Virus record (IMG/VR): IMGVR_UViG_3300034072_000766
Span: 1-39,588 of that record
Length of the DNA: 39,588 nt
Origin: a virus
Strand: one strand, 5' to 3'
A model generated the notes under the pieces. That model worked only from the letters and a program-made list of their open reading frames with translations, had not been told where the DNA came from and made no database searches. Of this stretch, positions 11,921 to 27,573 are shown in pieces. A program made the position numbers and the translations under genes. Positions within the stretch are counted from its first letter, which is position 1. Every line of letters begins with the position of its first letter.

Positions 11921-12155
11921 CAGACATATACACTCGAGCGGCCTCTTGTTGCGTACTCTTATGAAGGGGATAGGCAAACACCTATCCCCACTGAGACGCG
12001 ACTGAGGTCGCCCCGCCGTCATGCTGCATTCGGTGCAGCCGCTGAACGCAGCGGGTAACTATCCAAATGGCCGACCCAACCCACTGCTTGCAAGCTTGGC
12101 CCTGAATTGACAGGCGTGCACCACGGACGCGTGGTGCTTGGTCGGGATCCTTTAT
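11921..12155 (+). other. Non-coding stretch with stable hairpins
   Basis: No credible gene. Two perfect hairpins: 11966-11974 with 11981-11989 (GGGGATAGG/CCTATCCCC, loop CAAACA) and 12118-12125 with 12130-12137 (GCACCACG/CGTGGTGC, loop GACG), the latter 18 bp before the tRNA. Neither is followed by a T-run. It could be a structured leader for the tRNA or an unrecognised small RNA. Confidence 0.4.
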
Positions 12156-12232
12156 CGTGGAGTAGAGCAGCCCGGTAGATCGACAGCCTCATAAGCTGGA
12201 GGCCGTGAGTTCAAATCTCACCTCCGCAACCA
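12156..12232 (+). tRNA. tRNA-Met(CAU), initiator-like
   Basis: A 77-nt cloverleaf with encoded CCA. Acceptor CGTGGAG pairs with CTCCGCA, leaving C1 opposite A72 unpaired, the hallmark of bacterial initiator tRNA. The D arm is GAGC/GATC with A11:U24, the anticodon loop is CTCATAA, and the T arm is GTGAG TTCAAAT CTCAC. The anticodon stem is ACAGC/GCTGG, so the three consecutive G:C pairs usual in initiators are reduced to mixed pairs. The gene lies in the phage between early and late modules, just outside the inner element. Confidence 0.9.
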
Positions 12233-12249
12233 ATCCCATGCGCGTTCTC

Positions 12250-12268
12250 CTCCGCTTGCATGGTGATC
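12250..12268 (+). repeat. attL core, 19-bp direct repeat
   Basis: CTCCGCTTGCATGGTGATC is identical to 28831-28849, and the flanking bases differ at both ends. It lies 17 bp after the tRNA. GTCAATAAA occurs 16 bp inside it (12285-12293), and the same string lies 15 bp inside the right copy (28807-28815), as integrase arm sites would. Confidence 0.85.
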
Positions 12269-12305
12269 TAGAGTTGCCAATAAAGTCAATAAATACCAAT
12301 GACTT

Positions 12306-12328
12306 AGGCTCCGCAAGGGGCCTTTTTC
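12306..12328 (+). terminator. Rho-independent terminator
   Basis: AGGCTCC and GGGGCCT form a 7-bp stem (one G-T pair) around a GCAA tetraloop, followed by TTTTT. It lies 38 bp inside the element, downstream of the tRNA, and would stop outer-phage transcripts from entering the element. Confidence 0.85.
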
Positions 12329-12376
12329 ATGCGCTAAAAACGCTGTAAAAAAGCGTGAATGAAATCAACCGCTTGT

Positions 12377-12401
12377 CGGATGTTCTCGGATTTTAGCGGA
12401 T
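12377..12401 (+). promoter_or_regulatory. Three CGGAT repeats at 10-bp steps
   Basis: CGGAT at 12377, 12387 and 12397, exactly one helical turn apart, 36 bp upstream of the AlpA-like start and about 110 bp from the att core. Phased direct repeats of this kind are typical targets of small winged-helix excisionase/AlpA proteins. The binding protein is inferred. Confidence 0.5.
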
Positions 12402-12436
12402 ACTAGGCGCGACAAATGCGCAACAAGGAATGCAAC

Positions 12437-12640
12437 ATGGAACAGGATAAAGACCGGGCTGACCTGCTCTATGGCGTGCCCGAAATTGCAGAGTTTATGG
12501 GCAGGTCTACGGCAGCCGTATATCACCTAGCTCGCGCAACGGACTTCCCGAAATTCAAGCTTGGCGGCACGGTCTGCGCGCGTCGATCTAGTATCAACGC
12601 TTGGCTGGCTGACCTTGAAGCTAAGGCCCGCTGCGGATGA
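12437..12640 (+). CDS. AlpA/excisionase-like winged-helix regulator
   Basis: A 67-residue protein with a MerR/AlpA-type helix-turn-helix: LLYGVPEIAEFMGRSTAAVY (recognition region), ATDFPKFKLGGTVCARRSS (wing) and INAWLADLEA. This is the usual excisionase and satellite activator fold; in P4 and PICIs such proteins control integrase and early genes. ATG 12437 is preferred over 12416 because AAGGA precedes it at normal spacing. Its stop overlaps the Rep start (ATGA). The phased CGGAT repeats upstream are likely its own operator. Confidence 0.8.
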   Translation: MEQDKDRADLLYGVPEIAEFMGRSTAAVYHLARATDFPKFKLGGTVCARRSSINAWLADLEAKARCG

Positions 12641-13842
12641 AGGCGCGTAAGAAAGTTAGCCCGTTTGAACCGGGATGGAAGACGCCGGAGCCGTGTTTCG
12701 ATTTTCGAACGCACGGCTACTTCCCCCGAAGAGGCCGCAAGCAGTTCGTCATATCCGACCTGCTTGCCCTTGAGGAAATCAGCGTTGTCTATGGTGAGCC
12801 GGAGGCGGGCAAGGGCAATTTCGTTCTGAGCATGGCTTTAGCTGCTGCCAACGGCATGACTTGGTTCGGCAGGGATGCTGGTGTTCTTCGCGATGATGGC
12901 CTTTGGTGGCCCGCCGGCGTTCTGTACTTCGCTCTTGAGAGGGCGGCTCAAGTTGAGAGGCGCATCAACGCGTTCACCACCCACCACGGAATCATGTCTG
13001 ATATCCCTATCGCGGTCAGCGACGCAAAATTCGACATCCGCGAGGATAGGGCGGCCAGTATGATCGTGGAAACGGTCTATGAGGCGCATGATTGCTTTGA
13101 GTGCAGCAAGCTGCCGGGCGAGACCGACCGCCTGAGCGACTACCAGCCGGAAACCAACCTTGTCATCATCGACACCTTGGCCATGGCTCTTGCGGATGGA
13201 AACGACAGTGACCCAGGAGACCTTGGGCAAGCGATTAGGACATGCCACCGCATCAAGGATGAAACCGGCGCTCATGTATTGCTGGTTACGCACACCCCCA
13301 CAAGCGGCGATGCCCGAATTCGTGGTCATGGCAGCTTGAATGCAGCAATCGACTTGAGCATCCATGTTGACCAGAAGCGCGGCTCTCGGGTTGCATCCGT
13401 CAAAAAGAATAGTGATGGCGCAGAGAAGCCGAAGTTTTACTTCTCCCTGAAAAACATTCAGGAGCCGGTTATGTGGGACGACGAGGAAAGCGACTTTGTA
13501 ACTATCTCCCCCGCACCAATCCTTGTGGAGGAAGAGCCACCGAAGGCCAGTGATAAGCCGAAAGGCGAGGGCAAGCCGAAGGGACCATTACCAAGCAAAG
13601 GTGAGCAGCCCGTGCTGCATGCGCTGGCGGTATGCGCAGAACCGGTGGCCGAAGATGTTTGGCGTGCCGCATATGACGCTGCCAAGGATGAGGACATCAG
13701 CCCCGGCACCCACCGGACGCGGTTCTCTCGCGGTAAGGTCGCGCTAGTGGCAAAGGGCCTCATCAAGCAAGATGAGGCTGGCTTGTGGAGCGTTACAGTT
13801 TCACCGTTACAATCGGAAAACTGTAATTCTGAAATTCTGTAA
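12637..13842 (+). CDS. RepA-like AAA ATPase, satellite replication protein
   Basis: A 401-residue protein. A RepA/RecA-like ATPase domain (residues about 40-270) has a P-loop reading GEPEAGKGN (about 55-63), where the usual Ser/Thr after Lys is Gly, a Walker B-like NLVIIDTLAMAL (about 173-184) and VLLVTHTPTSG (about 213-223). A Lys/Pro/Gly-rich linker (about 295-325) leads to a C-terminal winged-helix-like domain. That domain (DVWRAAYDAAKDED through GLIKQDEAGLWSV) has the same layout as the end of the outer phage's primase/RepA protein. It lacks a primase domain. It probably binds the GTTACA repeats that begin in its own last codons. Confidence 0.8.
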   Translation: MKARKKVSPFEPGWKTPEPCFDFRTHGYFPRRGRKQFVISDLLALEEISVVYGEPEAGKGNFVLSMALAAANGMTWFGRDAGVLRDDGLWWPAGVLYFALERAAQVERRINAFTTHHGIMSDIPIAVSDAKFDIREDRAASMIVETVYEAHDCFECSKLPGETDRLSDYQPETNLVIIDTLAMALADGNDSDPGDLGQAIRTCHRIKDETGAHVLLVTHTPTSGDARIRGHGSLNAAIDLSIHVDQKRGSRVASVKKNSDGAEKPKFYFSLKNIQEPVMWDDEESDFVTISPAPILVEEEPPKASDKPKGEGKPKGPLPSKGEQPVLHALAVCAEPVAEDVWRAAYDAAKDEDISPGTHRTRFSRGKVALVAKGLIKQDEAGLWSVTVSPLQSENCNSEIL

Positions 13843-13929
13843 CGTCACGTTTTTCGACAGGTTTGGGCGCTCAGCCGTTACATCCGTCACATGTTACATA
13901 CCCCCTCTTTAGAGGGGTAGTAATGTAAC
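13792..13929 (+). repeat. Satellite origin-like GTTACA repeats and palindrome
   Basis: Six exact GTTACA/TGTAAC hexamers: forward at 13792, 13806, 13877, 13893; reverse at 13838 and 13924, plus looser copies. Near the right end, flanked by TA, is CCCCCTCTTTAGAGGGG (13901-13917), the counterpart of the outer phage's CCCCCTCTTAAGAGGGGG. It lies directly at and after the end of the RepA-like gene, so an origin or autoregulatory site is likely. Confidence 0.6.
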
Positions 13930-13976
13930 GTGTACGGCGTGACGCGCTTAGCCCTGTTTGCTTCATGGAGAGCAGC

Positions 13977-14249
13977 ATGGATTATGATGAAGTTTATGAT
14001 GCGGTGAAAAACGCATGTGATGATGCGTTGAAGCAGGAAGCTGATGACGCTGAAGTCCCCAAGAACGCATTTCCCATCAAGCCATTCAAGGCGGTGGATT
14101 TCTATGAAAGCCCTGTTGATGTCGTCGGCGTGGCACTAGTGGGGGCTGGCTTCGAATTCATTGTCATGAAGCGCGACCCTGCTGATGGCGATGCCATCTA
14201 TCTAAATCTCGAAAATCAGGTTTGGGACGCCCCTGAACCTTCACCGTAA
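13977..14249 (+). CDS. Hypothetical acidic protein
   Basis: A 90-residue, very acidic protein: DYDEVYDAVKNACDDALK, then EADDAEVPK, then a beta-rich part (VDVVGVALVGAGFEFIVMK). No family recognised. ATG 13977 has GGAGAG upstream; ATG 13965 is possible. It stands alone between the repeat region and the morphogenesis operon. The position would suit a regulator or DNA mimic, but nothing specific supports this. Confidence 0.5.
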   Translation: MDYDEVYDAVKNACDDALKQEADDAEVPKNAFPIKPFKAVDFYESPVDVVGVALVGAGFEFIVMKRDPADGDAIYLNLENQVWDAPEPSP

Positions 14250-14335
14250 TTCAGGGGTGGTGCCCTGATAGCCCGTGGCGCTCTTCTCCTCGCGCATCCG
14301 GGCGGCTGATCCGCTGGCAAGGCTGGCGTTGATCC

Positions 14336-14370
14336 CCCGCGCTCCCCGGTTTCGGCTGGGTGAGCGCGGG
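14336..14370 (+). other. 9-bp hairpin before the portal gene
   Basis: CCCGCGCTC (14336-14344) pairs perfectly with GAGCGCGGG (14362-14370), with a 17-nt loop and no T-run. It lies 27 bp before the portal start, in the only leader of the morphogenesis operon, so it could be a regulatory leader. Confidence 0.4.
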
Positions 14371-14397
14371 CGGTTAGCTCTCATGAAAAGGTACAAT

Positions 14398-15609
14398 ATG
14401 AACGTCTTCACCCGAGTGAGGCGAGCCTATTCGCTTGTCCGCAAATCCCTCTCAAATCCAACGGAGTTCGAAAAAGAGATCCTTGGCTTTCGGCAGGCGG
14501 CGGCAGGGATATCGGTCACGCCATCAATCGCAATGGAATGCTCTGCGGCTCGCGCTTGCGTGCAGGTTATTTCCGAAACAATCGGCCAGTTGCCGGTTAT
14601 CACCTACAAGAAGGGAGAGAACGGCCAGAAGGAAAGAAACCCTGACAGCCCAATCTACCCCCTTCTTCATGATGCCGTCACGGAATGGCTTTCGGCCAGT
14701 GAATTTCGTGAGATTGTCACCCGCGATGCTCTGCTCACTGGTAACGGTTACGCGTTGATTGAGCGGGATGGTGAGGAGGTCACCGGCCTCTTTCGCCTTT
14801 GCCCTGACCGGATGAAGGTTAACACGGACGAAGCGGCCGAACCGGTTTACAAGTACACGGATGATGGCAAGCAGATAGAATATCAGTATTCGGATGTCCT
14901 GCACATCCGCGCCCCCTCCTTTGATGGCTACACCGGCGCATCTCCCATTGTTGCTGCGCGAGAAGCGATTGCCCTAGCGGTGGTAATGGAGCGGCATGCC
15001 GCAACGCTGTTCAAGAATGGAGCGTCGCCCGGCGGCGTCATCGAGCACCCCGCACGGTTGGGTGATGATGTAGCCGAAAGGATTGAGAAAAGCTGGAATG
15101 CCACACATGGCGGAGACAATGCGGGCGGCGTTGCCGTGCTTGAAGAGGGCGCGTCATACAAGCAAGTCGGCATGACCAGCGCAGATGCTCAATTCCTCGA
15201 AATGCGAAAGCAGGCGAACGAAGACATTAGCCGCTTCTTCCGCGTGCCACCCATCTTCCTCAATGACTATGACCGGGCAACATGGGGGAACGGGGAGCAG
15301 CAGGGCACGCAGCTTGTGACCTATTGCCTGATGCCGTGGATGAAGAAGTGGGAGGCGGAAATTCGCCTGAAGCTCCTCAGTCCAGAAGAGCGAAAGACAC
15401 AATATGCAGAGTTCCTTGTTGATGACCTTCTCCGCGCCGACACAGCAGCGCGCTACGAAAGTTACGCCAAGGCAATCGCCTCCCGGTTCCTGTCTCCAAA
15501 CGAAGCCAGATCGCGGGAAAACCTGCCTCCCTATGACGGGGGCGATAAGTTCGAAAATCCGAACACAACCACCACGCCGGCCACCACGCCGGAGAAAGTG
15601 ACAGAATGA
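14398..15609 (+). CDS. Phage portal protein (HK97 gp3 family), satellite copy
   Basis: A 403-residue portal protein of the HK97 gp3 type. An N-terminal region with PSIAMECSAARACVQVIS precedes the conserved core DVLHIRAPSFDGYTGASPI and AATLFKNGASPGGVIEHP. The C-terminal part contains RFFRVPPIFLNDYDRATWGN and CLMPWMKKWE. It forms the dodecameric head vertex through which TerL pumps DNA. AAAGG precedes ATG 14398; longer upstream starts have no ribosome site. It is the first gene of the element's structural operon, unusually placed before rather than after the terminase genes. Its last bases overlap the next gene. Confidence 0.9.
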   Translation: MNVFTRVRRAYSLVRKSLSNPTEFEKEILGFRQAAAGISVTPSIAMECSAARACVQVISETIGQLPVITYKKGENGQKERNPDSPIYPLLHDAVTEWLSASEFREIVTRDALLTGNGYALIERDGEEVTGLFRLCPDRMKVNTDEAAEPVYKYTDDGKQIEYQYSDVLHIRAPSFDGYTGASPIVAAREAIALAVVMERHAATLFKNGASPGGVIEHPARLGDDVAERIEKSWNATHGGDNAGGVAVLEEGASYKQVGMTSADAQFLEMRKQANEDISRFFRVPPIFLNDYDRATWGNGEQQGTQLVTYCLMPWMKKWEAEIRLKLLSPEERKTQYAEFLVDDLLRADTAARYESYAKAIASRFLSPNEARSRENLPPYDGGDKFENPNTTTTPATTPEKVTE

Positions 15610-15932
15610 TTGAAAGACCCTTCGCCGGCGGAGAACACAAGTTCGCCTTTGGCTATGATGAAGCGGTTGAATGGGAGCGGCTACGGCGCAAGAGCCTTTA
15701 TCGCACGGCGCTGGAAATGGAAGATGACCGCTGGTTTATGGCCGATGTGATTGAGGTTGTTCGGCTTGGTCTTATTGGCGCGGGCATGCCCCAGTCAGAA
15801 GCGGATGATGCCGTTGAGTACAATGTCCGCAAACGCCCGCTCGCCGAAAACCGAAAGCTAGTTCTGGCAATCCTTGATGATGCGTACTTCGGTCCCAAGG
15901 AAGAAACTAAGACCGAAGAGGCCACAGAATGA
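15606..15932 (+). CDS. GTA gp10-like tail chaperone family protein
   Basis: A 108-residue protein. RPFAGGEHKFAFGYDEAVEW, then VIEVVRLGLIGAGMPQSEAD, then RPLAENRKLVLAILDDAYFG matches the gene-transfer-agent gp10/Phage_TAC_11 pattern, normally a tail assembly chaperone next to the tail tube gene. Here it lies between portal and capsid and overlaps both by 4 bases. A second, clearer chaperone is at 25320 in the same element, so this one may have another role. Confidence 0.6.
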   Translation: MIERPFAGGEHKFAFGYDEAVEWERLRRKSLYRTALEMEDDRWFMADVIEVVRLGLIGAGMPQSEADDAVEYNVRKRPLAENRKLVLAILDDAYFGPKEETKTEEATE

Positions 15933-17563
15933 CAAGGCTGGTCGTCAAAGCCAATAGCGTAAGCATTGGCAGTTCTGGCGAAGTCATAGGTATTGCATGG
16001 CCCTTCGGCTCACCAGATAGCGAAGGCGACGTCATCCGTAAGGGTGCCATTCGCTTCGCAAAAAATGTCCCCATGGTCATGGAGCACTACCAAGAGCAGG
16101 TTGTGGGGATTTGGCAGGACTTTGAAGAAACTGATGATGGCCTAGTGGTCAAAGGTCAGTTGTTTATCGAAGGCATCGGCCCCGCGCGAGAGGCGCACCG
16201 CAAGCTGAAATCCCGGCAGATCAACGGGCTTTCAATATCTTGGATTGGTGGAGATTCCGTTGCCCGACCCGGTGGCGGCCGCGAATACACCAGCATCACC
16301 ATCAACGAAATCTCTCTATGTCGCGACCCGGCTCACCCTGGCGCACGCGTCATCAATGTGAAATCCGCAAGCAGCGGGAAAGGCACGAAATTGAAAACTG
16401 CACCGAAGAAGAAAGCCGTTGAAGATCAGGTTCCGGCAAATGACAACGTTGACGAAAACGAAGAAGTGACCGTTGAGGAAGTCGATGAGCGAGTCGATGC
16501 ACTCGAAGCCGAACTGGCAGAAATCAAGGAGCTTGTCACCGGCACCAACGAAAGCGTTGCGGAAGTGACGAAGTCGGTTCGCCGTCTGGTCACCAAGTCC
16601 GCGCGTCCGGGCGCAAAGGTAGAAGCGCCTGAGAACGCCGAAGAGACCGCGAAGAAGGCTTTCGTTTCCTATCTTCGCCGCGGTGAAGACAGCACGGTCA
16701 CCAAGTCCCTGCGTCGAGGTTCTGACCCGAAGGGCGGCTATCTCGCTCCTCCGGAATTTGTTAAAGAACTCATTCGAGAAATCGTGGAACACTCCCCAAT
16801 CCGCGAAAACTCCTTTGTCGGCTCTACCGGCAGTTCTTCGGTCATCATCCCCGGCCGCGTCGGACGCACCAACGCCAAGTGGAAGGGCGAGACCGAAACG
16901 CAGGAAGAAAGCACCTTCGACTTCGAAGAGCAAGAAATCGCAATTCATGAAGTCAACACCTTTGTTGATGTCAGCAACCAGCTCCTAGAAGATTCCGAAA
17001 TCGACGTAGAGGCAGAAATTCGCCTTGCTTTCGCTGAGGATCTTGGCGGCAAGGAAAGTGAAGCATTCCTCTTCGGTGATGGCGTGAAGAAGCCAAACGG
17101 CTTCATGGTCGATCCGCGCGTCACTGACTTTGCTTCCGGTGCGGCCGAGGCGGTTACCGCTGACGGTCTTATCCAGATGCTCTACTCCGTCCCGCAGGTC
17201 TACCGCTCTTCTGGTGTATGGACGATGAACGGCACTACGCTGGGCGTTCTCCGCACCCTCAAGGATGGTGAAGGAAACTATATCTGGCGCCCCGGCCTCA
17301 CCGAGGGCCAGCCTGAAACGCTCCTTGGCCGTCCGGTAGTTGAAGCTCTGGATATGCCAGACATTGCTGCAGGCGCAACTCCGATTGTCTTCGGTGACCT
17401 GAAGCAGGCGTACCGCATCTATGACCGCACGGATATTGAGGTTCTCACCAACCCGTACCTGCTGGCCACGGAAAGCAAGACCCGCTTCCACCTCCGTAAG
17501 CGCCTTGGTGCCGGCGTGGTTCGTCCGTCCGCAATCAAGAAGCTGCGCATCGCCGTTTCCTAA
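15929..17563 (+). CDS. Fused HK97 prohead protease and major capsid protein
   Basis: A 544-residue fusion. Residues 1-155 form an S78 prohead protease: VMEHYQ (catalytic His near 52), GLSISW (catalytic Ser near 102) and a TINEISLCRDPAHPGA strand. Residues about 155-240 are an acidic, coiled-coil scaffold-like delta region (DERVDALEAELAEIKELV), preceded by VPANDN. Residues about 240-544 are the HK97 gp5 fold: GGYLAPPEFV, WKGETETQEE, FLFGDGVKKPNGF, YIWRPGLTEGQPETLLGRPV and FGDLKQAYRI. The outer phage makes these as two genes with an unrelated ClpP-type protease. The protease would have to release itself during maturation. Confidence 0.92.
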   Translation: MTRLVVKANSVSIGSSGEVIGIAWPFGSPDSEGDVIRKGAIRFAKNVPMVMEHYQEQVVGIWQDFEETDDGLVVKGQLFIEGIGPAREAHRKLKSRQINGLSISWIGGDSVARPGGGREYTSITINEISLCRDPAHPGARVINVKSASSGKGTKLKTAPKKKAVEDQVPANDNVDENEEVTVEEVDERVDALEAELAEIKELVTGTNESVAEVTKSVRRLVTKSARPGAKVEAPENAEETAKKAFVSYLRRGEDSTVTKSLRRGSDPKGGYLAPPEFVKELIREIVEHSPIRENSFVGSTGSSSVIIPGRVGRTNAKWKGETETQEESTFDFEEQEIAIHEVNTFVDVSNQLLEDSEIDVEAEIRLAFAEDLGGKESEAFLFGDGVKKPNGFMVDPRVTDFASGAAEAVTADGLIQMLYSVPQVYRSSGVWTMNGTTLGVLRTLKDGEGNYIWRPGLTEGQPETLLGRPVVEALDMPDIAAGATPIVFGDLKQAYRIYDRTDIEVLTNPYLLATESKTRFHLRKRLGAGVVRPSAIKKLRIAVS

Positions 17564-17633
17564 TCGGTCAACACATCACTGACTTTAGAGGGCTGCTTTC
17601 GGGTGGCCCTTCCTATTTCGCGAAAGGAATAAT

Positions 17634-18017
17634 ATGCGCGATCTTTCTCATAACATTGGCACCAAACTTGCGGTTGCCCCAGCGGTACAGACCGCAAGCG
17701 TGAATGGCCTGTCCATTGACACAAAAGACTTCGGCTCACTCGCTTTCGTCATTGCCACCGGCGCCATTGACGCTGCCGGCGTGTTCAATGCGAAAATTCA
17801 GGAGTCCGACACCGGCACATCTGGCTGGACCGACGTTGACCCTGAGCTTGTAACCGGAGCGTTTGCCAGCCCACTGGCTGCGAACTCGACCACAAAGGCG
17901 GGTTACATTGGCTACAAGCGCTATGCGCGTCTCGTGCTCACCAAGGGCACCGGAACTTCGCTTGTGATTGGTGCGGTGGCCGTTCAGGACCACGCAATCA
18001 AGCGCCCGGTAGCTTAA
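17634..18017 (+). CDS. Probable head decoration or structural protein
   Basis: A 127-residue protein, beta-rich, with VNGLSIDTKDFGSLAFVI, then FNAKIQESDTGTSGWTDV, then GYIGYKRYARLVLT. Proteins of this pattern commonly follow the capsid gene in rhizobial and rhodobacterial prophages and are probably capsid-associated. The role is inferred from position. GAAAGGAA precedes ATG 17634; a terminator follows 12 bp after the stop. Confidence 0.6.
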   Translation: MRDLSHNIGTKLAVAPAVQTASVNGLSIDTKDFGSLAFVIATGAIDAAGVFNAKIQESDTGTSGWTDVDPELVTGAFASPLAANSTTKAGYIGYKRYARLVLTKGTGTSLVIGAVAVQDHAIKRPVA

Positions 18018-18028
18018 TCACCTATCAC

Positions 18029-18054
18029 AAGGCTCGCTTCGGCGGGCCTTCTTC
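18029..18054 (+). terminator. Rho-independent terminator
   Basis: AAGGCTCGC and GCGGGCCTT form a 9-bp stem (one G-T pair) around a TTCG tetraloop, followed by CTTCTT. It lies between the decoration-like gene and the tail tube gene, so it may tune rather than end late transcription. Confidence 0.7.
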
Positions 18055-18069
18055 TTATGAGGTAAACAC

Positions 18070-18495
18070 ATGGCACAGCAAATCGGTCGCACGCTGCTTA
18101 TTCAGATTGGCAACGGCCTTGATCCTGAGGTCTTCACTAACTTGTGTGGCCTGACGACACGCAGTTTCGGTCTTAGCACCAATTCGGTTGAGACAACCAT
18201 TCCGGACTGCGAAAATCCCGCTGACCCGCCGCAGCGCACTTCCGAACCGGGCATCAACAATCGTACGTTCTCCGGCTCTGGTGCCTTTGTGAAGAGCGCC
18301 AACACTTCGGCCTTCTTCAACTATGTGGTCAATTCCGAAGTGTTCAATGCGAAAGTCATTGTTCCCGGTCTTGGCACATTCACCGGCCCATTCTTCGTTG
18401 CTGACTTCGAGCTTACCGGCGAAACCGAAGGCAACATGCAGTTCTCCGCTACCTTCGAGCCCACGGGCAAGTTGGCGTTTGTAGCCGAAGCCTAA
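18070..18495 (+). CDS. Major tail tube protein (TP901-1 type), satellite copy
   Basis: A 141-residue protein. GRTLLIQIGNGLDPEVFTNL, then CGLTTRSFGLSTNSVETTIPDC, then FTGPFFVADFELTGETEGNM and FSATFEPTGKLAF match the Phage_tail_2/TP901-1 major tail family. It would polymerise into a siphophage tail tube. A same-family protein is encoded in the outer phage at 37934, with the same PDC...DPP/DAP region, so the two tubes can be compared directly. Tail-tube genes are unexpected in known capsid-forming satellites. Confidence 0.85.
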   Translation: MAQQIGRTLLIQIGNGLDPEVFTNLCGLTTRSFGLSTNSVETTIPDCENPADPPQRTSEPGINNRTFSGSGAFVKSANTSAFFNYVVNSEVFNAKVIVPGLGTFTGPFFVADFELTGETEGNMQFSATFEPTGKLAFVAEA

Positions 18496-18660
18496 TCAGG
18501 TGGCACATGAAGAGGGCAACGGGTAGACCGCTATCGCGGTCCCCTTACGGGCCTGTCCGCCAACGGTAGACGCCTCTCCGCCACCAGCATTCGTTCAGGG
18601 AGTCAAGGCGTCACGGTCCAGAGCATCCCCTTTCTCCTTTGAGGGGTAACTGCTCACGTG

Positions 18661-18695
18661 CGGGCGAGGCCCATCCAACCTCGCCCGGTTTTTTT
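18661..18695 (+). terminator. Strong rho-independent terminator
   Basis: CGGGCGAGG (18661-18669) pairs perfectly with CCTCGCCCG (18679-18687), then G and seven T. It lies in the 213-bp gap between tail tube and HNH genes. An additional short hairpin GACCGC/GCGGTC lies near 18527-18542. It divides the structural genes into two transcription blocks. Confidence 0.85.
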
Positions 18696-18708
18696 ACATG
18701 AGGCTCAT

Positions 18709-19062
18709 ATGGTAGATGGAACACCGCGAGTGTGTGCATGCGGCCTTGAGGTGGTGCCGTATGGCAGCCCATGCTCATGTGCGCTAAGAAGGAAGGCCGC
18801 ATTGGATGCGGCGAGGCCAAGTGCTTCGGCAAGGGGATATGACAGGCAGTGGCGCAACCTGCGGAGCGCCTTCATCAAGGTCAACCCCACATGTTCAACG
18901 GATGGATGCGGCAAGCCCGCGACTGATGTTGACCACATAATTTCGGTGAAAGAAAAGCCAGAACTGAGGCTTGTTTGGTCGAATTTGCGGCCCTTTTGCC
19001 ATGCTTGCCACTCTCGTCACACCGCGAGAACGCAAGGATTCGCCCGAAAGTCCCCCCTATGA
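18709..19062 (+). CDS. HNH endonuclease (phage packaging type)
   Basis: A 117-residue protein. An N-terminal Cys cluster (VCACGLEVVPYGSPCSC) is followed by ARGYDRQWRNLRSAFIK and a classical HNH core: CSTDGCGKPATDVDHIISV, then WSNLRPFCHACHSRHTAR. This is the HK97 gp74-like nuclease that works with terminase in cos cleavage. It normally sits beside TerS; here four connector genes separate them. ATG 18709 is used because the terminator lies over the longer frame. Confidence 0.85.
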   Translation: MVDGTPRVCACGLEVVPYGSPCSCALRRKAALDAARPSASARGYDRQWRNLRSAFIKVNPTCSTDGCGKPATDVDHIISVKEKPELRLVWSNLRPFCHACHSRHTARTQGFARKSPL

Positions 19063-19136
19063 CGAAACTTTGGCCTTGGGGCCGTGGACCGTCGGGGGCC
19101 ACAACTTCGTGATTTTTCCTATTTGGAGTTTTGAGA

Positions 19137-19439
19137 ATGGCAATTTCTCTGGCCGATGTGAAGGCCGAATTGCGCATCAAGCATGCGCATGAAGACACTC
19201 TTATAGCACGGAAACTATCGGCCGCTCAAGACTACGTTGAGACCCAGATTGGCACAAAGCTAGCCGACATTCCGGGTGGCGCTCCTTCCTCCCTTGAGGA
19301 AGCGGTGATCAGTCTGGCGTGTCACTTCTATGAGTGGCGCGGCGCGGCAACCGAGGGCGGTTTGTCCTCTATCCCGGACGGCTTTCAAGATTTGCTGCGG
19401 GCAAACCGGTATGGAAGGTTTGCTGATGGCGCGGAATAA
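19137..19439 (+). CDS. Head-tail connector (gp6-like), satellite copy
   Basis: A 100-residue helical protein starting MAISLADVKAELRIKHAHED, the typical opening of the HK97 gp6 / Phage_gp6-like DNA-packaging connector, then AAQDYVETQIG and ISLACHFYEWRGA. It should form the first adaptor ring under the portal. The end overlaps the next gene by 14 bases. GGAG upstream supports ATG 19137 over TTG 19131. Confidence 0.8.
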   Translation: MAISLADVKAELRIKHAHEDTLIARKLSAAQDYVETQIGTKLADIPGGAPSSLEEAVISLACHFYEWRGAATEGGLSSIPDGFQDLLRANRYGRFADGAE

Positions 19440-19839
19440 AAGCGTGGCGCGCGTGGTCAAGCGCCTGCAGAACATCCCAAGGATGGTACGTGAGGAACTG
19501 ATTAAAGAGAACCTTGCGACCGCTGAGGAGGTGGCAATCGTGATGCGCCGATTTGCACCGGTTGATTCCGGAGCGTTGAAGGAGAGCATCACGGTTACCC
19601 CCGGCGGCGAGATGACCCCGCTCCATTCCCAGCCGGGCGGGCGATACGTGGTCCCTGATAATCAGGTGGTCATCACCGCCGGCAATAATGCAGCGCGGTA
19701 TGCGCATCTTGTTGAATGGGGCACCAACGACACCGAGGCCAAGCCGTTCTTCTGGCCGGTTATCCGTAGCATGCGGCAGCGCATGTTGAGAAAGCTTAGG
19801 GCCGCCGCCCGTAAAGCCGTGAAGAGGGGCGTAAAATGA
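19426..19839 (+). CDS. HK97 gp10-family tail completion protein, satellite copy
   Basis: A 137-residue basic protein. VVKRLQNIPRMVREEL, then MRRFAPVDSGALKESITV, then ARYAHLVEWGT and AKPFFWPVIRSMRQRML is the standard HK97 gp10 signature (PVDTGxLRxS / YAxxVExGT / PFLRPA). It probably works at the head-tail interface. ATG 19426 is the natural start; the upstream frame overlaps the previous gene too deeply. Confidence 0.85.
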   Translation: MARNKSVARVVKRLQNIPRMVREELIKENLATAEEVAIVMRRFAPVDSGALKESITVTPGGEMTPLHSQPGGRYVVPDNQVVITAGNNAARYAHLVEWGTNDTEAKPFFWPVIRSMRQRMLRKLRAAARKAVKRGVK

Positions 19840-20180
19840 GAGCTACATCTAGCCTCAGAAGCGTGCTGGTCTACGTCCAGAAAGAGGCCCCGGAAATAGA
19901 CGATGGTTACGGTGGCGTCATCCCCGGCGGTTGGGTCACTCAAGAGGAAGCGTGGGCTAGGGTCCAGCCGCTCAAGGGCAGCGAAACAGTCATAGCGGCC
20001 CGCCTCACAGGGAAACAGCCGTTCGTCATCACCATACCCATGACGCCCGAGAACGGCGCGATCGACCGAAGCTGGCGCATAAAAGAGGCTGACAGCGGCA
20101 AGATGCACCGGATTACCTCATTCGCCAACATGGACGAACACGGCCGGGACTGGGAATTGCTCACGGAGTATTTGACTTGA
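19836..20180 (+). CDS. Head-tail adaptor (Phage_H_T_join), satellite copy
   Basis: A 114-residue beta-rich protein. DDGYGGVIPGGWVTQEEAWA, then GSETVIAARLTGKQPFVITI, then WRIKEADSGKMHRI matches the SPP1 gp16 / H_T_join head-closure family. The gene order gp10 then adaptor is inverted relative to the outer phage (adaptor at 36658, gp10 at 37011). Both ends overlap neighbours by 4 bases. Confidence 0.8.
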   Translation: MRATSSLRSVLVYVQKEAPEIDDGYGGVIPGGWVTQEEAWARVQPLKGSETVIAARLTGKQPFVITIPMTPENGAIDRSWRIKEADSGKMHRITSFANMDEHGRDWELLTEYLT

Positions 20181-20566
20181 TTGAGCCAACCCTAGCTTTG
20201 CAGGGCGGGATTTTTGCCGCCATCAAAAACAACACGGCGGCCGGGAGCAACGTCTTTGACAAAGTCCGGCCGGATGTTTTTCCACGCGTTCAAATCGGCA
20301 GCGGGCAGGTGGTGACCGATGAGCCTGATTGTGTAGAGGGAGCCGAGGTATTCTTTCAAGTTGATGTGTACTCCAAGGCCGAAGGTTTCCTTGAATGCAA
20401 AAGCATCACTTGGGAGGTCCGCAACCTAATCCACAAACAGCCGCTGACTGTCGCCGAATGGACCTTGATTGAGGTTCGGCTGAGTGACGCAGACTACAGC
20501 CGGGATGACGCAACGGGCATCTCTCGCGGGCGCATGACGCTTCGGGCGTACATGGAGATGATCTGA
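20177..20566 (+). CDS. DUF3168 tail terminator-like protein, TTG start
   Basis: A 129-residue protein beginning IEPTLALQGGIFAAIKNN, a DUF3168 opening (compare ADPTLELQGAIIARLKAN in the outer phage at 37462), then FFQVDVYSKAEGF and a C-terminal GRMTLRAYMEMI. The family is thought to cap the tail tube (gpU-like). The only sensible start is TTG 20177, in TTGA overlap with the adaptor stop. TerS follows with a one-base overlap. Confidence 0.75.
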   Translation: MIEPTLALQGGIFAAIKNNTAAGSNVFDKVRPDVFPRVQIGSGQVVTDEPDCVEGAEVFFQVDVYSKAEGFLECKSITWEVRNLIHKQPLTVAEWTLIEVRLSDADYSRDDATGISRGRMTLRAYMEMI

Positions 20567-20943
20567 TGGCAAGAGGCCCAAAGGCTGGCATCGCTCGGCC
20601 ATCGAACCCTATGACCGAAATTCCTCCGCCTCCGTCAATCCTTGATAAGGATGCCCGCAAGGTCTGGAAAGAGATCATGCCCGATCTTGTTGAGCGAAAG
20701 ATTTTGACGGCAGCCGACATGCCGCAACTGCGGTCTTTCTGCATGGCGTGCGGAAAAGTCGAAAAGCTCGAGCGCGCCATTCAAGCAGACCCCGGCTTCG
20801 ACCCGGCACTTTACCGCGCCCAAGACAAGGCGATGACCACCGCCAGGCAGATTGGTGACCAATACGGACTTGCGCCCACTTCGCGCTCTAAGCCAGCAAT
20901 AAGGGATGCCGACGATGACGATAATGAGGCCATCTTGGATTGA
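20566..20943 (+). CDS. Terminase small subunit, P27 family
   Basis: A 125-residue protein: MARGPKAG, then EIPPPPSILDKDARKVWKEI, then LTAADMPQLRSFCMACG is the P27/phage terminase small-subunit pattern, which recognises DNA at cos or pac. The acidic tail ([12 protein letters not shown]) is translated from DNA that also encodes the start of TerL in another frame. It is unrelated in sequence to the outer TerS at 30454, so the element has its own packaging specificity. Confidence 0.85.
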   Translation: MARGPKAGIARPSNPMTEIPPPPSILDKDARKVWKEIMPDLVERKILTAADMPQLRSFCMACGKVEKLERAIQADPGFDPALYRAQDKAMTTARQIGDQYGLAPTSRSKPAIRDADDDDNEAILD

Positions 20944-22537
20944 TGATGGCTCCGAAATTGAAGACCCTCTAGGTTATGCGGCCCGCAACATTGAGTGGCT
21001 GGAGAAGCTGAAGCATCCCAAGAACAAGGCAAAGGGCAATCGCTTCACCCTTGATGAATGGCAGAAGCGCATACTTCAGAAAATCTTCGGGCCGCGTAAC
21101 CCAGACGGGACAATGATTGTCCAGCAGGTCTTCCTGCTTCTCCCTAGAGGCAACAGAAAAACATCTCTCTGCGCGGCCATCACCGCGCTTTTTCTTTTCG
21201 GTCCTGAGAAGGTCACCGGCACGCTTATCCAATCTGCCGGTGCAGCCCGAAAGCAGGCGCGAGAGTGCTATGAAGAGCTTGCCAGCATCGTGCAGTTTGA
21301 TGGCCGGCTCCGGGGTAACATTCGACTTCAGGACTACAAGAGCCGCATCATCTACCCGAAGCACCGCACGCGCTATGAGGCGGTCTCTGCCGACGCGGGC
21401 GTTCTCCATGGTGGCACGCCAAGGCTTGTCATTGCTGACGAGCTTCATGTGTGGAAGCACCGCGACCTTTGGGATGCGCTGGATTCCTCACTGACCAAAA
21501 CTGATGACAGCATAATGATGATCGCCACCACGGCGGGCCGAGGGCAGAACAACATTGCCTTTGAGAAATTCAACTATGCCTGCAAGGTCCAGCGCGGCGA
21601 AGTGGTCGATGATACGTTCTTGCCGGTAATCTTCTCCGCTACCAAGGATGAAGATTATAAGGATGAGGCGGTCTGGAGGGCGGTCAATCCGGGGCTTAAT
21701 TGCCCGGTGCCGTATCCGTCCCTCAAGAAGCTTCGGGCGCTTGCCAACAAGGCGGAGCACTCCCCCGGTGACAGGGATGAGCTTCAGCAGCTACATCTCA
21801 ATGTCTGGCTCGATAACTCCACAAGCAGCTTTGTTGAGATGCGGGAATATGACCGGGGCGCAGAACCTTTTGACATCGAGCAGTTTGCGGGTAAGCCGTG
21901 CTGGGTGGGCGTTGATATGTCTACTAGCGTTGACCTTACTTGCGTCGTTGCATGCTGGCGCGGCGAGGGCGACCACCTCTACGCTCACGCTCACCACTTT
22001 TGCCCGGAAGAGGGCATCCACAAGAAGGCCATTGTTGACGGCGTTCCTTATCCTCACTGGCAAGAGAAGGGGTTTATCACGCCCACCCCCGGAGTGAAGA
22101 TCGATCAGGACTATGTTGAGCGGTACATCACCGGCTTGTGCCAGAAGTACCGTGTGCAGGAAATCGCATTCGATGATGCCTATGCGGGCCTGCTCATTGC
22201 GTCACTCCAGAAAAGTCACCATCCGGTGATAACCATGCAACAGGGGTGGAAAACTCAATCCCCCGCGCTGATGCGCCTAGAGGCAAGGATACTTGCGGGA
22301 GAATTTCATCACGGCGGCAATCCCGTTCTGCGGTGGAATTTTGAAAACGCTGTTGTGAATACCGACAGCAACGGCAATCGCACGCTCCACAAAGGCAAAT
22401 CAACAGACCGAATTGACGGGTGCTTCGCAACATGGATGGCGGCCGACCGCGCTTCATTCGGTGGCAATCTTGATTCCGTCTACAGAGATCAAACGGCGCG
22501 GCCCGGTGGGCTTCGCATAATTGGAGGTCGTCGTTGA
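20915..22537 (+). CDS. Terminase large subunit, satellite copy
   Basis: A 540-residue HK97-type TerL. The N-terminal ATPase has an atypical Walker [11 protein letters not shown] (residues about 74-83), Walker B VIADELH (about 171-177) and coupling motif IATTAG. The C-terminal RNase H-like nuclease has [13 protein letters not shown] (first Asp), IAFDDAYAG and a late Asp in [10 protein letters not shown]. It pumps and cuts DNA at the portal. The Met chosen at 20915 has AAGGG upstream; 20906 is possible. The gene overlaps TerS by about 29 bases and ends TGATG with the tape-measure gene. Confidence 0.9.
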
Positions 22538-24537
22538 TGGCCAGAACCGAAGATGACCAGTTAGTATTCGCGCTTGAGACCCGCATCCGGGATCTTGAGC
22601 GCAACATGAACAAGGCCGCCAGAATTGTTGGAAAATCTGGCGACCAGATCGAGAGCCGGTTCAAGAAGCTCTCCAACTCAGTTTCTACCGGGGTGACCGG
22701 TGCCGTGGACAAGGCCAATGCGGCACTAGGTAAGCTGGGGATTGGTGCGACTATCGGCGTGGCGGGTATCACCGCCGCCGTTGCAGGTGTGCAGCAGCTT
22801 TCGGACACCGTTGCCAGAACTGGTGATGCGGCTCGCCGGGCTGGACTGGATTTTAAGACCTTCCAGCAACTGGCCTACGTCGCGAAGTCAAACCGCATTG
22901 AAGTTGATGCTTTAACTGATGGTGTGCGTGAGCTTCAGCTTCGCGGTGCTGAATTCTTTTCTACCGGGGAGGGCAGTGCGGCTGAAGCTTTTAAGGCTCT
23001 TGGGTATTCTGCGGAAGAGGTCCGTGAAAAGCTCAAGCAGCCTTCTGCCTTCCTCACCGAAATCTTGGACAAGCTCAAGCAGTTCGACAAGGCCAGCCAA
23101 ACCCTGATGACCGACTCCCTTTTCGGTGGAACCGCCGCCGAAGAGTTCGTGCGCCTCATCGATCAGGGCGCTGACGGAATCAGGCGAACCATCAGCGAGG
23201 GTGAGGCACTCGGCCAGGTGCTGACTGATGACGTGCTAGTGAAGGCGCGTGACCTTGATGATGTGTTCCGCGATGTCGGGGACACGGTGGGCGGCCACCT
23301 CAAGGCACTCATCATTGAGGCGTCTTGGGAGCTCGCCCGATTCATTGACACATGGCGAGGTTTCGAGAACCAGCGAACCACCACCCTTGATGCCAGCCTT
23401 GCCAGCATCGGTGAGAAGCGTCTTGAGATTGAGACCAAAATTCTTGAGTTGCGCGACCAGATGCGCAACAACACAAGCTTTCTGGCGCAGGCGGAAAACC
23501 GGCAAACCGAAGCGACAATCAAGGCGCTTCAGGAGCAATCCGACAAGCTCAACCAGCAAGAGTCCGAAATCCTTGGCGTGCTGAAAAAGCGCGACCCGGC
23601 GACCTCTCCTAGCAACCCGCCGCCGACTCGGACGTTGCCGCCTCCGCCACCGGATAAGGGCGGCGGAAGAAGTAAGGCGGCATCTGATGCGGAGCGCGAG
23701 CGCGAGGCCGTGGATAGGCTCATTGAGTCTTTGGATTTCGAATACTCGATGATTGGCAAGACCGACGTGCAGCGGGAAAAGATGCTTGCCTTACGGCAGG
23801 CGGGCAAGGCCGCCACTGAGGAAGAAAAGCTCGCCATCATGAGTAAGGTTGACGCGATTTATGCGGAAACCGAAGCCTATGATAATGCGAAGGCAGCGGC
23901 AGAAGACGCCAGAGATGCAGCGCGTGATTTCGCCGGCACGTTGGTGAATGGCTTGGTAGAGGGCAAAAGCGCGACAGAGGCGCTAGGCGATGCCCTCAAG
24001 AACCTTGGCAGCCGCCTGATAAATTCTGGCCTTGATAGCCTATTCGGTATGGGCGGCAAGGGCGGCGGCATCTTCGGCGGGCTGTTCAACCTCTTCGGTG
24101 GTGGAACCTCCGCGGCCTCATATGCTGGCCTATCAGGCGGCTTGTTTTCTGACGGCGGCTACACCGGCGATGGGACGAAGTACGAACCTGCGGGGGTGGT
24201 CCATAAGGGCGAATACGTCTTTGATGCCGATGCAGTCCGCAAGGCAGGCGGTCCGAAAGCGATGGAGGCTATGCGCCGCAATCTCAAGGGGTATGCGGAC
24301 GGTGGCTATGTCGGGGCTGCCCCGGCGCTTGCTACGCCATCTGTTAGCAAATCGAGTGATGGCTCTTCGGGAGCGTCATCGACCGTTCTCAACTTCTCTC
24401 CAACGATCAACGCTGAAGGAGCAGATGCGGCCGGATTGGCGCGCGTTGAGGCGAGCCTCAACCGGCTCAAAGCGGAATTCAACACTCGCGTTGAGGGCGC
24501 AGTCAGAGACGCCCGCAAGCGTAACGTGAAACTATAA
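22537..24537 (+). CDS. Tail tape measure protein, short
   Basis: A 666-residue protein. An N-terminal coiled coil ([20 protein letters not shown]), a hydrophobic glycine-rich helix ([20 protein letters not shown]), long alpha-helical repeats, a Pro-rich break (about residues 355-375) and the characteristic C-terminus [20 protein letters not shown] then [10 protein letters not shown]. These are hallmarks of lambda-type tape measures, which set tail length (roughly 0.15 nm per residue, so about 100 nm). It follows TerL directly, an unusual neighbour. GGAGG precedes ATG 22537. Confidence 0.85.
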
Positions 24538-24549
24538 GGATATTACAAC

Positions 24550-24684
24550 ATGGCACTTTTTACTGGATCTATCCTTGCGAGCTTCGGCGCGGGATTGGCT
24601 GGCGTTTTCACCAGTATTGGCACCTGCCTGCTTCGAACGAACTTCGAGGAATTTAGTATGGAGGATTACCATGACCGCCATTAA
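24550..24684 (+). CDS. 44-residue hydrophobic small protein
   Basis: MALFTGSILASFGAGLAGVF begins a hydrophobic helix of about 24 residues, followed by a polar tail ending SMEDYHDRH. AAGGA lies 9 nt upstream of the ATG, and the gene fills the tape measure-downstream gap, overlapping the next gene by 14 bases. It could be a membrane microprotein or a relic of a larger tail protein that often follows the tape measure. Unknown. Confidence 0.55.
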   Translation: MALFTGSILASFGAGLAGVFTSIGTCLLRTNFEEFSMEDYHDRH

Positions 24685-25312
24685 CACCTTCGTTCGCGAA
24701 AGCGGCATCTATTTCGTTGTCGACGGCGCGACCTACCTGCCAGCTATGGGGGGGCAACCAGCCAAGAGGGGGCGGATGGCCAAGGTTCATCACCTGCCTT
24801 GGCTCGGCGCTGCATTCGCAATCACCGGCCCCGTCATGGCAACGTTCTGTCACGGCCCGATGATTGGTGACAGCCCAGCCAAGAACTTCGACGAGTTCGC
24901 TACGGGCTTCCCTGAACTCCTCAAGCGGGGCGCGGACGATATGCGGAAGGCCGGGCAGGCCCATCTATTCGGCCCTTGTGAGGTCGTCATCGGTGGGTGG
25001 TCAGATGAGCGCCAGCGCTATGAAGCATATGCCGTCAGTACAGACAGCAGCATTTCAAACGGCAAGCCGGCATTCACCCTGCGGCCAGTCACGAAGTACA
25101 TCAGACCTTATCCGCCGGCTGCCGTCGGTGCTGAATTCCACCCAGAGAGCGCGGCGCGAGACGGCATGCGCATTCTTGAGATGCAGCGCCGTGCGAATGT
25201 CGAATCGCCAGACGGAAAAAGCGTCAGCGGCGCAATCGGCGCATTCGCTCAGCTTGCACACCTTACCCGTGACGGCATGACGTCAAAGCTTATCGGCTTG
25301 TTTGAGGACTAG
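24671..25312 (+). CDS. Tail-region protein, possibly Ntn-hydrolase fold
   Basis: A 213-residue protein. TAINTFVRESGIYFVVDGAT, then KVHHLPWLGAAFAITGPVMA, then CEVVIGGWSDERQRYEAYAV resembles phage tail proteins with a proteasome-like (Ntn hydrolase) layout: a first strand, DGA, a hydrophobic strand ending in Gly, and a GGWS strand. No catalytic N-terminal Thr is evident after Met (TAI is possible if Met is removed). GGAGGA precedes ATG 24671. Function unknown; the position after the tape measure suggests a virion or tail-assembly role. Confidence 0.5.
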   Translation: MTAINTFVRESGIYFVVDGATYLPAMGGQPAKRGRMAKVHHLPWLGAAFAITGPVMATFCHGPMIGDSPAKNFDEFATGFPELLKRGADDMRKAGQAHLFGPCEVVIGGWSDERQRYEAYAVSTDSSISNGKPAFTLRPVTKYIRPYPPAAVGAEFHPESAARDGMRILEMQRRANVESPDGKSVSGAIGAFAQLAHLTRDGMTSKLIGLFED

Positions 25313-25319
25313 ACTGCGA

Positions 25320-25850
25320 ATGAACCACAGCCTTTCCGTATGCAAAATAGCCGGGGAGTGGCGGCAATTGCGGCTTACTCTTGGCGCAGCATTTGCCATC
25401 GACGCATCTATTCCTGATGGTATGGATGCGTTTCTAGACCGAGTGCAGAACGGCTCCTTTATGATGAGGGAGTTTCGCACGGCCGTAGCAAGCTTGTTGG
25501 TGGGGGGTGGCATGTCATACGCCGCTGCTCAGCAATGCATAGCGGCTTCTGGATTGCAGGAAGTAACTAAGATTTGCCTCTCAATCCTCATCTGCTGCAT
25601 GTCTCCGGACGAAGGCCAGCCACAGAAGGAAACCGGCGGACCAACTGAAGTCTACCGCTTAAAGGACAAGGCGGCAGAGATTTACTCCATGGCTTTCCAA
25701 ATCGGTCTCAAGCCGCATGAGGTGAGGGATATGACGGTATGGGAGTGGAGTAGATGCGTGGAAGGCTGGAACCGCGCACATGGTCGCGGTGATGAGTTGA
25801 AGGCGCCCGCGAAGAGCGAACTGGATGATCTTGTGGCAAAGTACAGTTAG
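25320..25850 (+). CDS. Fused tail assembly chaperone
   Basis: A 176-residue protein. The N-terminal part (WRQLRLTLGAAFAI, then LDRVQNGSFMMREFRTAVAS, then LLVGGGMSYAAAQQC) parallels the outer phage's GTA gp10-like chaperone (38377). The C-terminal part (KDKAAEIYSMAFQIGLKPHE, then DMTVWEWSRCVEGWNR) parallels the outer small downstream frame (GKLRFAALYGTAAVMGF, then EMSVWQFMAAVDGY). In most siphophages this product arises only by programmed frameshift; here it is one open frame. GAGGA upstream supports ATG 25320. Confidence 0.65.
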   Translation: MNHSLSVCKIAGEWRQLRLTLGAAFAIDASIPDGMDAFLDRVQNGSFMMREFRTAVASLLVGGGMSYAAAQQCIAASGLQEVTKICLSILICCMSPDEGQPQKETGGPTEVYRLKDKAAEIYSMAFQIGLKPHEVRDMTVWEWSRCVEGWNRAHGRGDELKAPAKSELDDLVAKYS

Positions 25851-26146
25851 GGGCGAGAAATCGCCCCCAGCAGCCCCAGATAGGGCAGGCGCACGATGAC
25901 AGTCGAATTCCTGGCAATATCCATCAGGGTGCCGACTTCGCACGCCCCATCATAAGGACGGCCACGGCGGGCGCATGACGCGGCTGCGCTGTCGATGATC
26001 CTATAGCCGACCAGTCCAGCCGCAATGATGGTGCGGCCTTCCGGTGCTCCATTGGATGGCGGGACTACAATTATGCGAACGCCGGCAATCCAGATGATTG
26101 CGGCAAGCAGGGCGGCGATGAGGGCAAGCGGTATGGCGGTCTTCAT
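25847..26146 (-). CDS. Membrane-anchored hypothetical protein
   Basis: A 99-residue protein on the minus strand, the only reversed gene in the element. The N-terminus KTAIPLALIAALLAAIIWIA is a signal-anchor or transmembrane helix, followed by a periplasmic-looking domain with two Cys (SCARRG, GACEVG). It converges with the chaperone gene, the stops overlapping by 4 bases. The ribosome site before ATG 26146 is poor; a GTG at 26170 is possible. I do not recognise it; lysogeny-expressed cargo (membrane or envelope effect) is plausible. Confidence 0.55.
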   Translation of the reverse strand: MKTAIPLALIAALLAAIIWIAGVRIIVVPPSNGAPEGRTIIAAGLVGYRIIDSAAASCARRGRPYDGACEVGTLMDIARNSTVIVRLPYLGLLGAISRP

Positions 26147-27535: not shown

Positions 27536-27541
27536 AAACAC

Positions 27542-27573
27542 CCCGGCCCGGTCATTCAGTGGCCGGGCTTTTT
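27542..27573 (+). terminator. Rho-independent terminator before integrase
   Basis: CCCGGCC (27542-27548) pairs with GGCCGGG (27561-27567), an alternative GCCCGG/CCGGGC pairing overlaps it, then CTTTTT. It separates the accessory operon from the integrase gene 20 bp downstream. Confidence 0.8.

What the first reader, a model, noticed from the sequence alone, without database searches (positions are those of the whole stretch)
12156..12232. Phage-encoded initiator-like tRNA lacking the full three G:C anticodon stem pairs
C1xA72 and A11:U24 are initiator hallmarks, but the anticodon stem has A:U, G:C and C:G pairs instead of three G:C pairs, and a 27:43 A-G mismatch. The three G:C pairs normally help P-site entry. 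A variant initiator could change start-codon choice (TTG and GTG starts are used by several genes here) or escape host quality control or tRNA-cleaving defences.
Basis: partly seen in the sequence, partly recalled or inferred. Interest (0 to 1): 0.6.

Follow-up and report, generated by a model that had tools for sequence, protein, structure and literature searches.

The report
Phage initiator tRNA with recoded stem
This bacterial virus carries its own gene for the tRNA that starts proteins; it belongs to a viral class whose stem differs from the host's right beside a known toxin cut site, which might let the virus keep making proteins when the cell destroys its own starter tRNA, though that use is unproven.

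Summary
The tRNA at 12156-12232 is real: a CAU tRNA with C1xA72, A11:U24 and encoded CCA. "Lacking three G:C pairs" is mostly host background: the 23 host-type initiators in 16 genomes holding this tRNA type all carry A29:U41. What is unusual is C31:G39. G30:C40 stays nearly invariant (92 of 93 distinct viral tRNAs), and stems covary strongly, so the class is maintained. Eight viral contigs carry the window's tRNA with C23 and C27, so this copy has two private stem-breaking changes and may be weakened. Best reading: a phage initiator tRNA that keeps the P-site pair but changes position 39, the 3' side of the A38/C39 bond cut by enteric VapC toxins, as a back-up initiator. The evasion step is inferred; drift is a serious rival. 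The start-codon idea is unsupported. In passing: a 16.6-kb capsid-encoding, integrase-bearing element is inserted 17 bp downstream.

The parts
12156..12232 (+). initiator-type tRNA gene, anticodon CAU (12190-12192), C1xA72, A11:U24, A29:U41, G30:C40, C31:G39, CCA encoded
12187..12195 (+). loop-closing pair C31:G39 (12187 and 12195), flipped relative to host G31:C39; host position 39 is the 3' side of the VapC A38/C39 cut
   Evidence: cut site from PMC4105405 passage
12179..12183 (+). two private C-to-A differences (positions 23 and 27) that break pairs 12:23 and 27:43; eight viral contigs with otherwise the same tRNA have C at both
   Evidence: cloverleaf energy -19.4 against -25.6 kcal/mol; Rfam 50.2 against 61.7 bits
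12020..12062 (+). conserved non-coding block upstream: hairpin CATGCTGCA..TGCAGCC, then GGTAACTAT; present in 10 aligned loci, including one without a detected tRNA (L007)
   Evidence: alignment
12063..12155 (+). about 92-nt module between GTAACTAT and the tRNA; absent from L100, L108, L164, L207, L091, L160 and NV1.1.1; present in L003, which has no detected tRNA, with differences on both sides of a hairpin stem (two sequences, by eye)
   Evidence: no Rfam match
12233..12268 (+). conserved stretch after the tRNA, ending in the left copy of the 19-bp repeat (12250-12268); in relatives it continues without a break into 28850 onward
12250..28849 (+). not part of the tRNA: inserted element with its own integrase and capsid genes, bounded by the 19-bp repeat (see Noticed in passing)

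Best explanation
Shown: this is a phage-borne initiator-type tRNA gene of a class found in many viral contigs. The class keeps the initiator D-arm pair A11:U24, usually lacks a Watson-Crick pair at 1:72, and keeps the central anticodon-stem pair G30:C40, but replaces host G31:C39 by C31:G39 (less often A:U or U:A). Inferred: it is charged with Met (CAU, A73), formylated and used in the P site, because the central G:C pair is kept. It serves as a back-up initiator during infection when the host's own initiator is removed, most plausibly by VapC-type nucleases; with G instead of C at position 39 the phage copy should be a poor substrate for an enzyme that cuts between A38 and C39. Inferred for this window: two extra stem mismatches make this copy weaker than its relatives', or mark early decay or a sequencing error.
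For: tRNA and initiator features. Host background A29:U41, G30:C40, G31:C39: (23 of 23 host-type copies in 16 genomes); the general pattern matched 170 of 289 genomes of the class. All 13 Rhizobiales genome loci have 1.6-7.0 kb of protein-level similarity to viral contigs outside the tRNA, so they look like prophages. G30:C40: 79 of 81 regular-frame distinct tRNAs, the other 2 G.U; 92 of 93 distinct in a scan not selected at 31:39; 38 of 38 in alignment A1. A scan for a changed 30:40 found only 27 viral contigs, not limited. Covariation. Cut site A38/C39: PMC4105405 passage. A Rhizobiales VapC (Bosea) depletes tRNA-fMet, with elongator tRNA-Met not degraded, when expressed in E. coli in the cold: PMC8522696 passages. 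Nine host genomes with this tRNA type each carry 4-24 PIN-domain genes. Named phages with the flip: NV1.1.1, RHph_TM3_3_3, Bajun, phiM12, Pumpernickel, DSS3P8.
Against: No expression, charging, formylation or cleavage data. In the scan not selected at 31:39, 77 of 93 distinct viral tRNAs still have G31:C39, though some are probably host genes at prophage edges. 27:43 and 29:41 also vary, so the change is not confined to position 39. 26 of 81 regular-frame tRNAs of the class have a Watson-Crick pair (U1:A72 or A1:U72) at 1:72. PMC10264068 states that phages generally avoided encoding tRNA-fMet where VapC-LT2 is the nuclease (passage). No particular VapC was matched to any phage here. The window copy has two broken pairs, and its predicted best fold is not the cloverleaf; nor is that of the relatives' copy. 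U3oG70 departs from a formylation determinant (C3:G70; PMC7949028 passage).
Confidence: 0.4

Rival explanations
1. The phage tRNA is an ordinary supplementary initiator (dosage or late-infection supply). Its stem drifts because a phage copy is under weaker selection; only the pairs needed for folding and the central G30:C40 are held. The flip at 31:39 has no defence meaning.
For: Several stem pairs vary while pairing is kept (27:43, 28:42, 29:41, 31:39). 77 of 93 distinct viral tRNAs keep G31:C39. Phage initiator-type tRNAs with host-like G31:C39 also exist (phiLM21, phiKX1, Myrna).
Against: Changed 31:39 pairs are mostly C:G (65 of 81) rather than a spread of types. Host initiators of the class almost never change it.
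Confidence: 0.33
2. This particular copy is decaying or carries base errors: two C-to-A changes four bases apart break pairs in the D and anticodon stems, so it may not be a working tRNA in this phage.
For: Eight contigs hold the same tRNA with C23 and C27, which restore both broken pairs; Rfam score 50.2 against 61.7 bits; cloverleaf energy -19.4 against -25.6.
Against: The remaining 75 positions are identical to those relatives, including CCA and the T arm; ARAGORN and Rfam still call it. It is one metagenomic contig; reads were not available.
Confidence: 0.17
3. The variant initiator shifts start-codon choice towards GTG or TTG in phage genes.
For: Some GTG and TTG starts with good Shine-Dalgarno sites exist (5 GTG and 2 TTG of 37).
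Against: The anticodon loop CTCATAA is unchanged; 30 of 37 picked starts are ATG. Many first-codon TTG/GTG in the ORF list come from the mechanical rule of taking the first possible start.
Confidence: 0.03
4. The tRNA is an attachment-site relic: the phage or the inserted element integrates into a host initiator tRNA gene and carries a copy of it.
For: An integrase-bearing element starts 17 bp downstream of the tRNA.
Against: The repeat (12250-12268) lies outside the tRNA. The longest run shared with host initiators is 14 nt. Relatives with the tRNA have the 19-bp site empty.
Confidence: 0.02

Closest known systems
Alphaproteobacterial (Rhizobiales) initiator tRNA-fMet
   Same: CAU, C1xA72, A11:U24, A29:U41, G30:C40, CCA encoded
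   Different: Host has G31:C39, C3:G70 and U27:A43; window has C31:G39, U3oG70, A27xG43 and G12xA23; 14-18 differences over 77 nt
Canonical bacterial initiator tRNA with three G:C pairs (E. coli type)
   Same: 1:72 mismatch, A11:U24, G30:C40, CAU
   Different: Only the central one of the three G:C pairs is kept in the original orientation
Unconventional initiator tRNAs (Samhita, Shetty and Varshney 2012; seen only as a reference entry, content recalled)
   Same: Recalled: E. coli can live on an initiator keeping only the middle G:C pair when the normal pool is reduced; Rhizobium and Mycoplasma lack the full set
   Different: Here the gene belongs to a phage and the third pair is reversed, not only the first one lost
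Phage tRNAs proposed to evade anticodon nucleases (PMC10264068; abstract and passages seen)
   Same: Change relative to the host next to a known nuclease cut site
   Different: That work reports anticodon-loop changes and says phages mostly avoid tRNA-fMet for VapC-LT2; here it is tRNA-fMet and the change is in the loop-closing stem pair
Sinorhizobium phage NV1.1.1 tRNA-Met (OP484858, 29095-29170)
   Same: Same gene order and place (early genes, tRNA, then terminase region), same stem core CCAGC/GCTGG, A11:U24, no pair at 1:72
   Different: C1xC72, different D loop, 27:43 paired; no inserted element between the tRNA and the late genes

Membership tests
Bacterial initiator tRNA (canonical, three G:C pairs) | No Watson-Crick pair at 1:72 | tested here: met
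   C1xA72
Bacterial initiator tRNA (canonical, three G:C pairs) | Purine 11 : pyrimidine 24 (A11:U24) | tested here: met
Bacterial initiator tRNA (canonical, three G:C pairs) | G29:C41, G30:C40, G31:C39 | tested here: not met
   A29:U41, G30:C40, C31:G39. So it is not filed as a canonical 3GC initiator; it is an initiator-type variant
Bacterial initiator tRNA (canonical, three G:C pairs) | Formylation determinants G2:C71 and C3:G70 | tested here: inconclusive
   G2:C71 present; position 3:70 is U.G; determinants as stated in PMC7949028 (passage)
Bacterial initiator tRNA (canonical, three G:C pairs) | Charged with Met, formylated, enters P site in vivo | not testable with these tools
   needs bench work
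Alphaproteobacterial initiator tRNA | A29:U41, G30:C40, G31:C39 stem | tested here: not met
   first two met, third reversed; host set
Phage initiator-type tRNA class with C31:G39 (defined here) | A11:U24, G30:C40, C31:G39, CAU, paired stems | tested here: met
   the window copy has two stem mismatches that its near relatives lack
Phage tRNAs that evade anticodon nucleases (PMC10264068) | Base change relative to the host at or beside a known cut site | tested here: met
   G39 for host C39; cut between A38 and C39; A38 kept
Phage tRNAs that evade anticodon nucleases (PMC10264068) | Insensitive to the nuclease and supports phage growth | not testable with these tools
   no assay
Integration-site tRNA relic | tRNA segment identical to the host gene, inside the attachment repeat | tested here: not met
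   longest shared run 14 nt; repeat lies outside the tRNA

The most novel reading that the evidence does not exclude
Phages across many groups carry a recoded initiator tRNA that keeps only the ribosome-critical middle G:C pair and swaps the loop-closing pair so that VapC-type defences, which cut host tRNA-fMet at A38/C39, cannot cut it. It competes poorly while host initiator is plentiful and takes over when the host pool is destroyed: a conditional replacement initiator.
Probability: 0.25. Interest if true: 0.75.

Novelty: new variant of a known kind. Interest (0 to 1): 0.45.

Why it matters
Initiation is rate-limiting, and tRNA-fMet is a recurrent target of VapC toxins. A recurrent phage initiator that differs from the host at the cut site would give a direct test of whether initiator-tRNA cleavage acts against phages, and would show which stem pairs the P site really needs: in viral copies only G30:C40 seems fixed. 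It also corrects a common expectation, since in Alphaproteobacteria the missing first G:C pair is normal.

Tried and rejected
Start-codon shift: rejected as main reading. Attachment-site relic: rejected. tRNA carried by the inserted element: rejected, because relatives hold the tRNA with the site empty. "No three G:C pairs" as the oddity: rejected after the host survey. Known RNA family for the upstream module: none at Rfam thresholds. A search of viral contigs with the element's portal found only 2 loci, with its integrase 6, with its excisionase-like gene 2. The integrase was not found in the three contigs around the second element, which are fragments. One search used a mis-set pattern (one base too long in the D loop), so its zero is uninformative. 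By-eye reading: in the listing (cut short by the tool) one alphaproteobacterial initiator, G249, has full 3GC. Counts rest on 112 of 120 stretches; the 8 left out were among the loci already held, fetched by the scans for changed 31:39 or 30:40, so the true share of stretches with a non-G31 tRNA is 12 to 20 of 120. One search dropped 15 of 96 distinct viral tRNAs, and 6 of 36 genome tRNAs, as not fitting the regular frame. Alignment A1 used 37 of the 80 distinct tRNAs listed, plus the window; those 80 already had at most one broken pair. Of the 14 phage records fetched by me from the 70 (found by likeness to the window), 13 parsed, and NV1.1.1 was added; EliS-L02 could not be parsed as a CAU tRNA, and the D-stem register printed for phiM12 and ValKK3 is off. 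A statement that this variant is not in print rests only on listings in the held library.

Full report
Observation. The window is an IMG/VR virus record of 39,588 bases. ARAGORN and Rfam agree on one tRNA, tRNA-Met(cat), at 12156-12232. Two further departures were not reported: G12xA23 in the D stem and U3oG70 in the acceptor stem.

Phage and place. The phage is a relative of Sinorhizobium phage NV1.1.1. Both share a Dmt methyltransferase gene (85% DNA identity over 540 bases), and in both the order is early genes, tRNA-Met, then the terminase and capsid region. The tRNA sits in a non-coding stretch where some relatives have other RNAs; L009 and L011, for example, have tRNA-Thr upstream of the terminase.

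Host background. Searching 16 genomes that carry a C31:G39 tRNA gave 39 initiator-type matches: 16 with C31:G39, one per genome, and 23 host-type, all with A29:U41, G30:C40, G31:C39. In 289 genomes of the class, 170 matched the general pattern, and only the seed genome had a non-G31:C39 copy. So A29:U41 is normal for these hosts and C31:G39 is the oddity. Extracted host initiators differ from the window tRNA at 14 to 18 of 77 positions.

Distribution. All 13 Rhizobiales loci among those 35 have 1.6 to 7.0 kb of protein-level similarity to viral contigs outside the tRNA, so they look like prophages; the five Mycoplasmataceae or Ureaplasma loci have U31xU39 and little or no such similarity. In a viral scan not selected at 31:39, 93 distinct tRNAs gave 31:39 as G:C 77, C:G 11, G.U 4, U:A 1, while 30:40 was G:C in 92 (112 of 120 stretches used). 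A scan for a changed 30:40 found 27 viral contigs in all. Of the 14 named phages parsed, C31:G39 is present in NV1.1.1, RHph_TM3_3_3, Bajun, phiM12, Pumpernickel and DSS3P8; Pumpernickel has G11:C24 rather than A11:U24, DSS3P8 has U.G at 30:40, and phiM12, Pumpernickel and DSS3P8 have U1:A72, so these three are less clear as initiators.

Is the class maintained? In 38 aligned tRNAs 98.8% of pair cells form standard pairs, 13 of 20 pairs change on both sides somewhere, and no shuffle of 500 reached any of the five measures. 10:25, 11:24, 13:22, 30:40 and 53:61 never vary there. This fits a functional tRNA with the central anticodon-stem pair under strong constraint.

The window copy. Eight viral contigs carry the same tRNA with C at positions 23 and 27. 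The window's A at both sites breaks two stem pairs: Rfam 50.2 against 61.7 bits, cloverleaf energy -19.4 against -25.6 kcal/mol. It may be weakened, or the bases may be errors; no reads were available.

Mechanism. Enteric VapC toxins cut tRNA-fMet at one bond between A38 and C39 (PMC4105405, passage). A Rhizobiales VapC from Bosea depletes tRNA-fMet, with elongator tRNA-Met not degraded, when expressed in E. coli in the cold (PMC8522696, passages), and nine host genomes with this tRNA type have 4 to 24 PIN-domain genes each (PIN domains include VapC toxins but were not typed). The phage class keeps A38 and replaces C39, mostly by G. I therefore favour a back-up initiator that host nucleases cut poorly. 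Against this, 29:41 and 27:43 also vary, most viral tRNAs in the scan not selected at 31:39 keep G31:C39, and PMC10264068 says that phages generally avoid tRNA-fMet for VapC-LT2 (passage). Drift under weak selection is nearly as good a reading. Work recalled from Samhita and others (2012), seen here only as a reference entry, holds that the middle G:C pair alone can sustain initiation when the normal pool is reduced; that would fit both readings.

Start codons. The anticodon is unchanged, and 30 of 37 starts chosen by Shine-Dalgarno match are ATG, so there is no sign of altered start choice.

An inserted element. From 12250 to 28849 lies a 16.58-kb stretch bounded by an exact 19-bp repeat, with an excisionase-like gene, AAA ATPase, portal, protease-capsid fusion, head-tail genes, small and large terminase, a 667-aa tape measure and a tyrosine integrase at the right end. 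Relatives of the phage have the 19-bp site once, with the flanks continuous. In a second phage of the family (contigs L392 and L393) a related element (excisionase-like gene 73% identical; a stretch of the 245-aa protein 94% identical over 187 residues) begins inside the portal gene after about 114 codons, where relatives have an intact reading frame. This looks like a family of capsid-encoding elements, perhaps satellites, that integrate into phage genomes. It deserves its own study and is not part of the tRNA claim.

Verdict. Its likely role in surviving initiator-tRNA cleavage is testable but unproven.

Noticed in passing
window 12250-28849: A 16.58-kb integrase-bearing element with its own portal, capsid, terminase, tail tube and tape-measure genes, bounded by a 19-bp direct repeat, sits between the phage tRNA and the phage late genes; relatives show the empty site. 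It looks like a capsid-encoding satellite integrated in a phage genome.
   Followed up: partly
L392 about 5470-7401, L393 about 350-10724, L394: A related element interrupts the portal gene of a related phage after about 114 codons, a second case of such an element inside a phage; right junction not found.
   Followed up: partly
window 12020-12062 and homologous stretches in nine other loci: Non-coding block CATGCTGCA..TGCAGCC..GGTAACTAT conserved upstream of tRNAs, and also in L007, which has no detected tRNA; function unknown.
   Followed up: partly
window 12063-12155; L003 about 120-194: Optional RNA-like module with differences on both sides of a hairpin stem between window and L003, no Rfam match.
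   Followed up: no
window 12240-12268, continuing at 28850-28896 in relatives: Conserved non-coding element just upstream of HNH and terminase genes; could be the phage cos region (guess), which the inserted element splits.
   Followed up: no
L172 581-654 and 772-856; L009 8211-8281; L011 8830-8904: The place between early and late genes seems to be a hot spot for different tRNAs.
   Followed up: no
L193, L197, L198, L199, L213: Ureaplasma and Mycoplasmataceae MAG initiator-type tRNAs with U31xU39.
   Followed up: no
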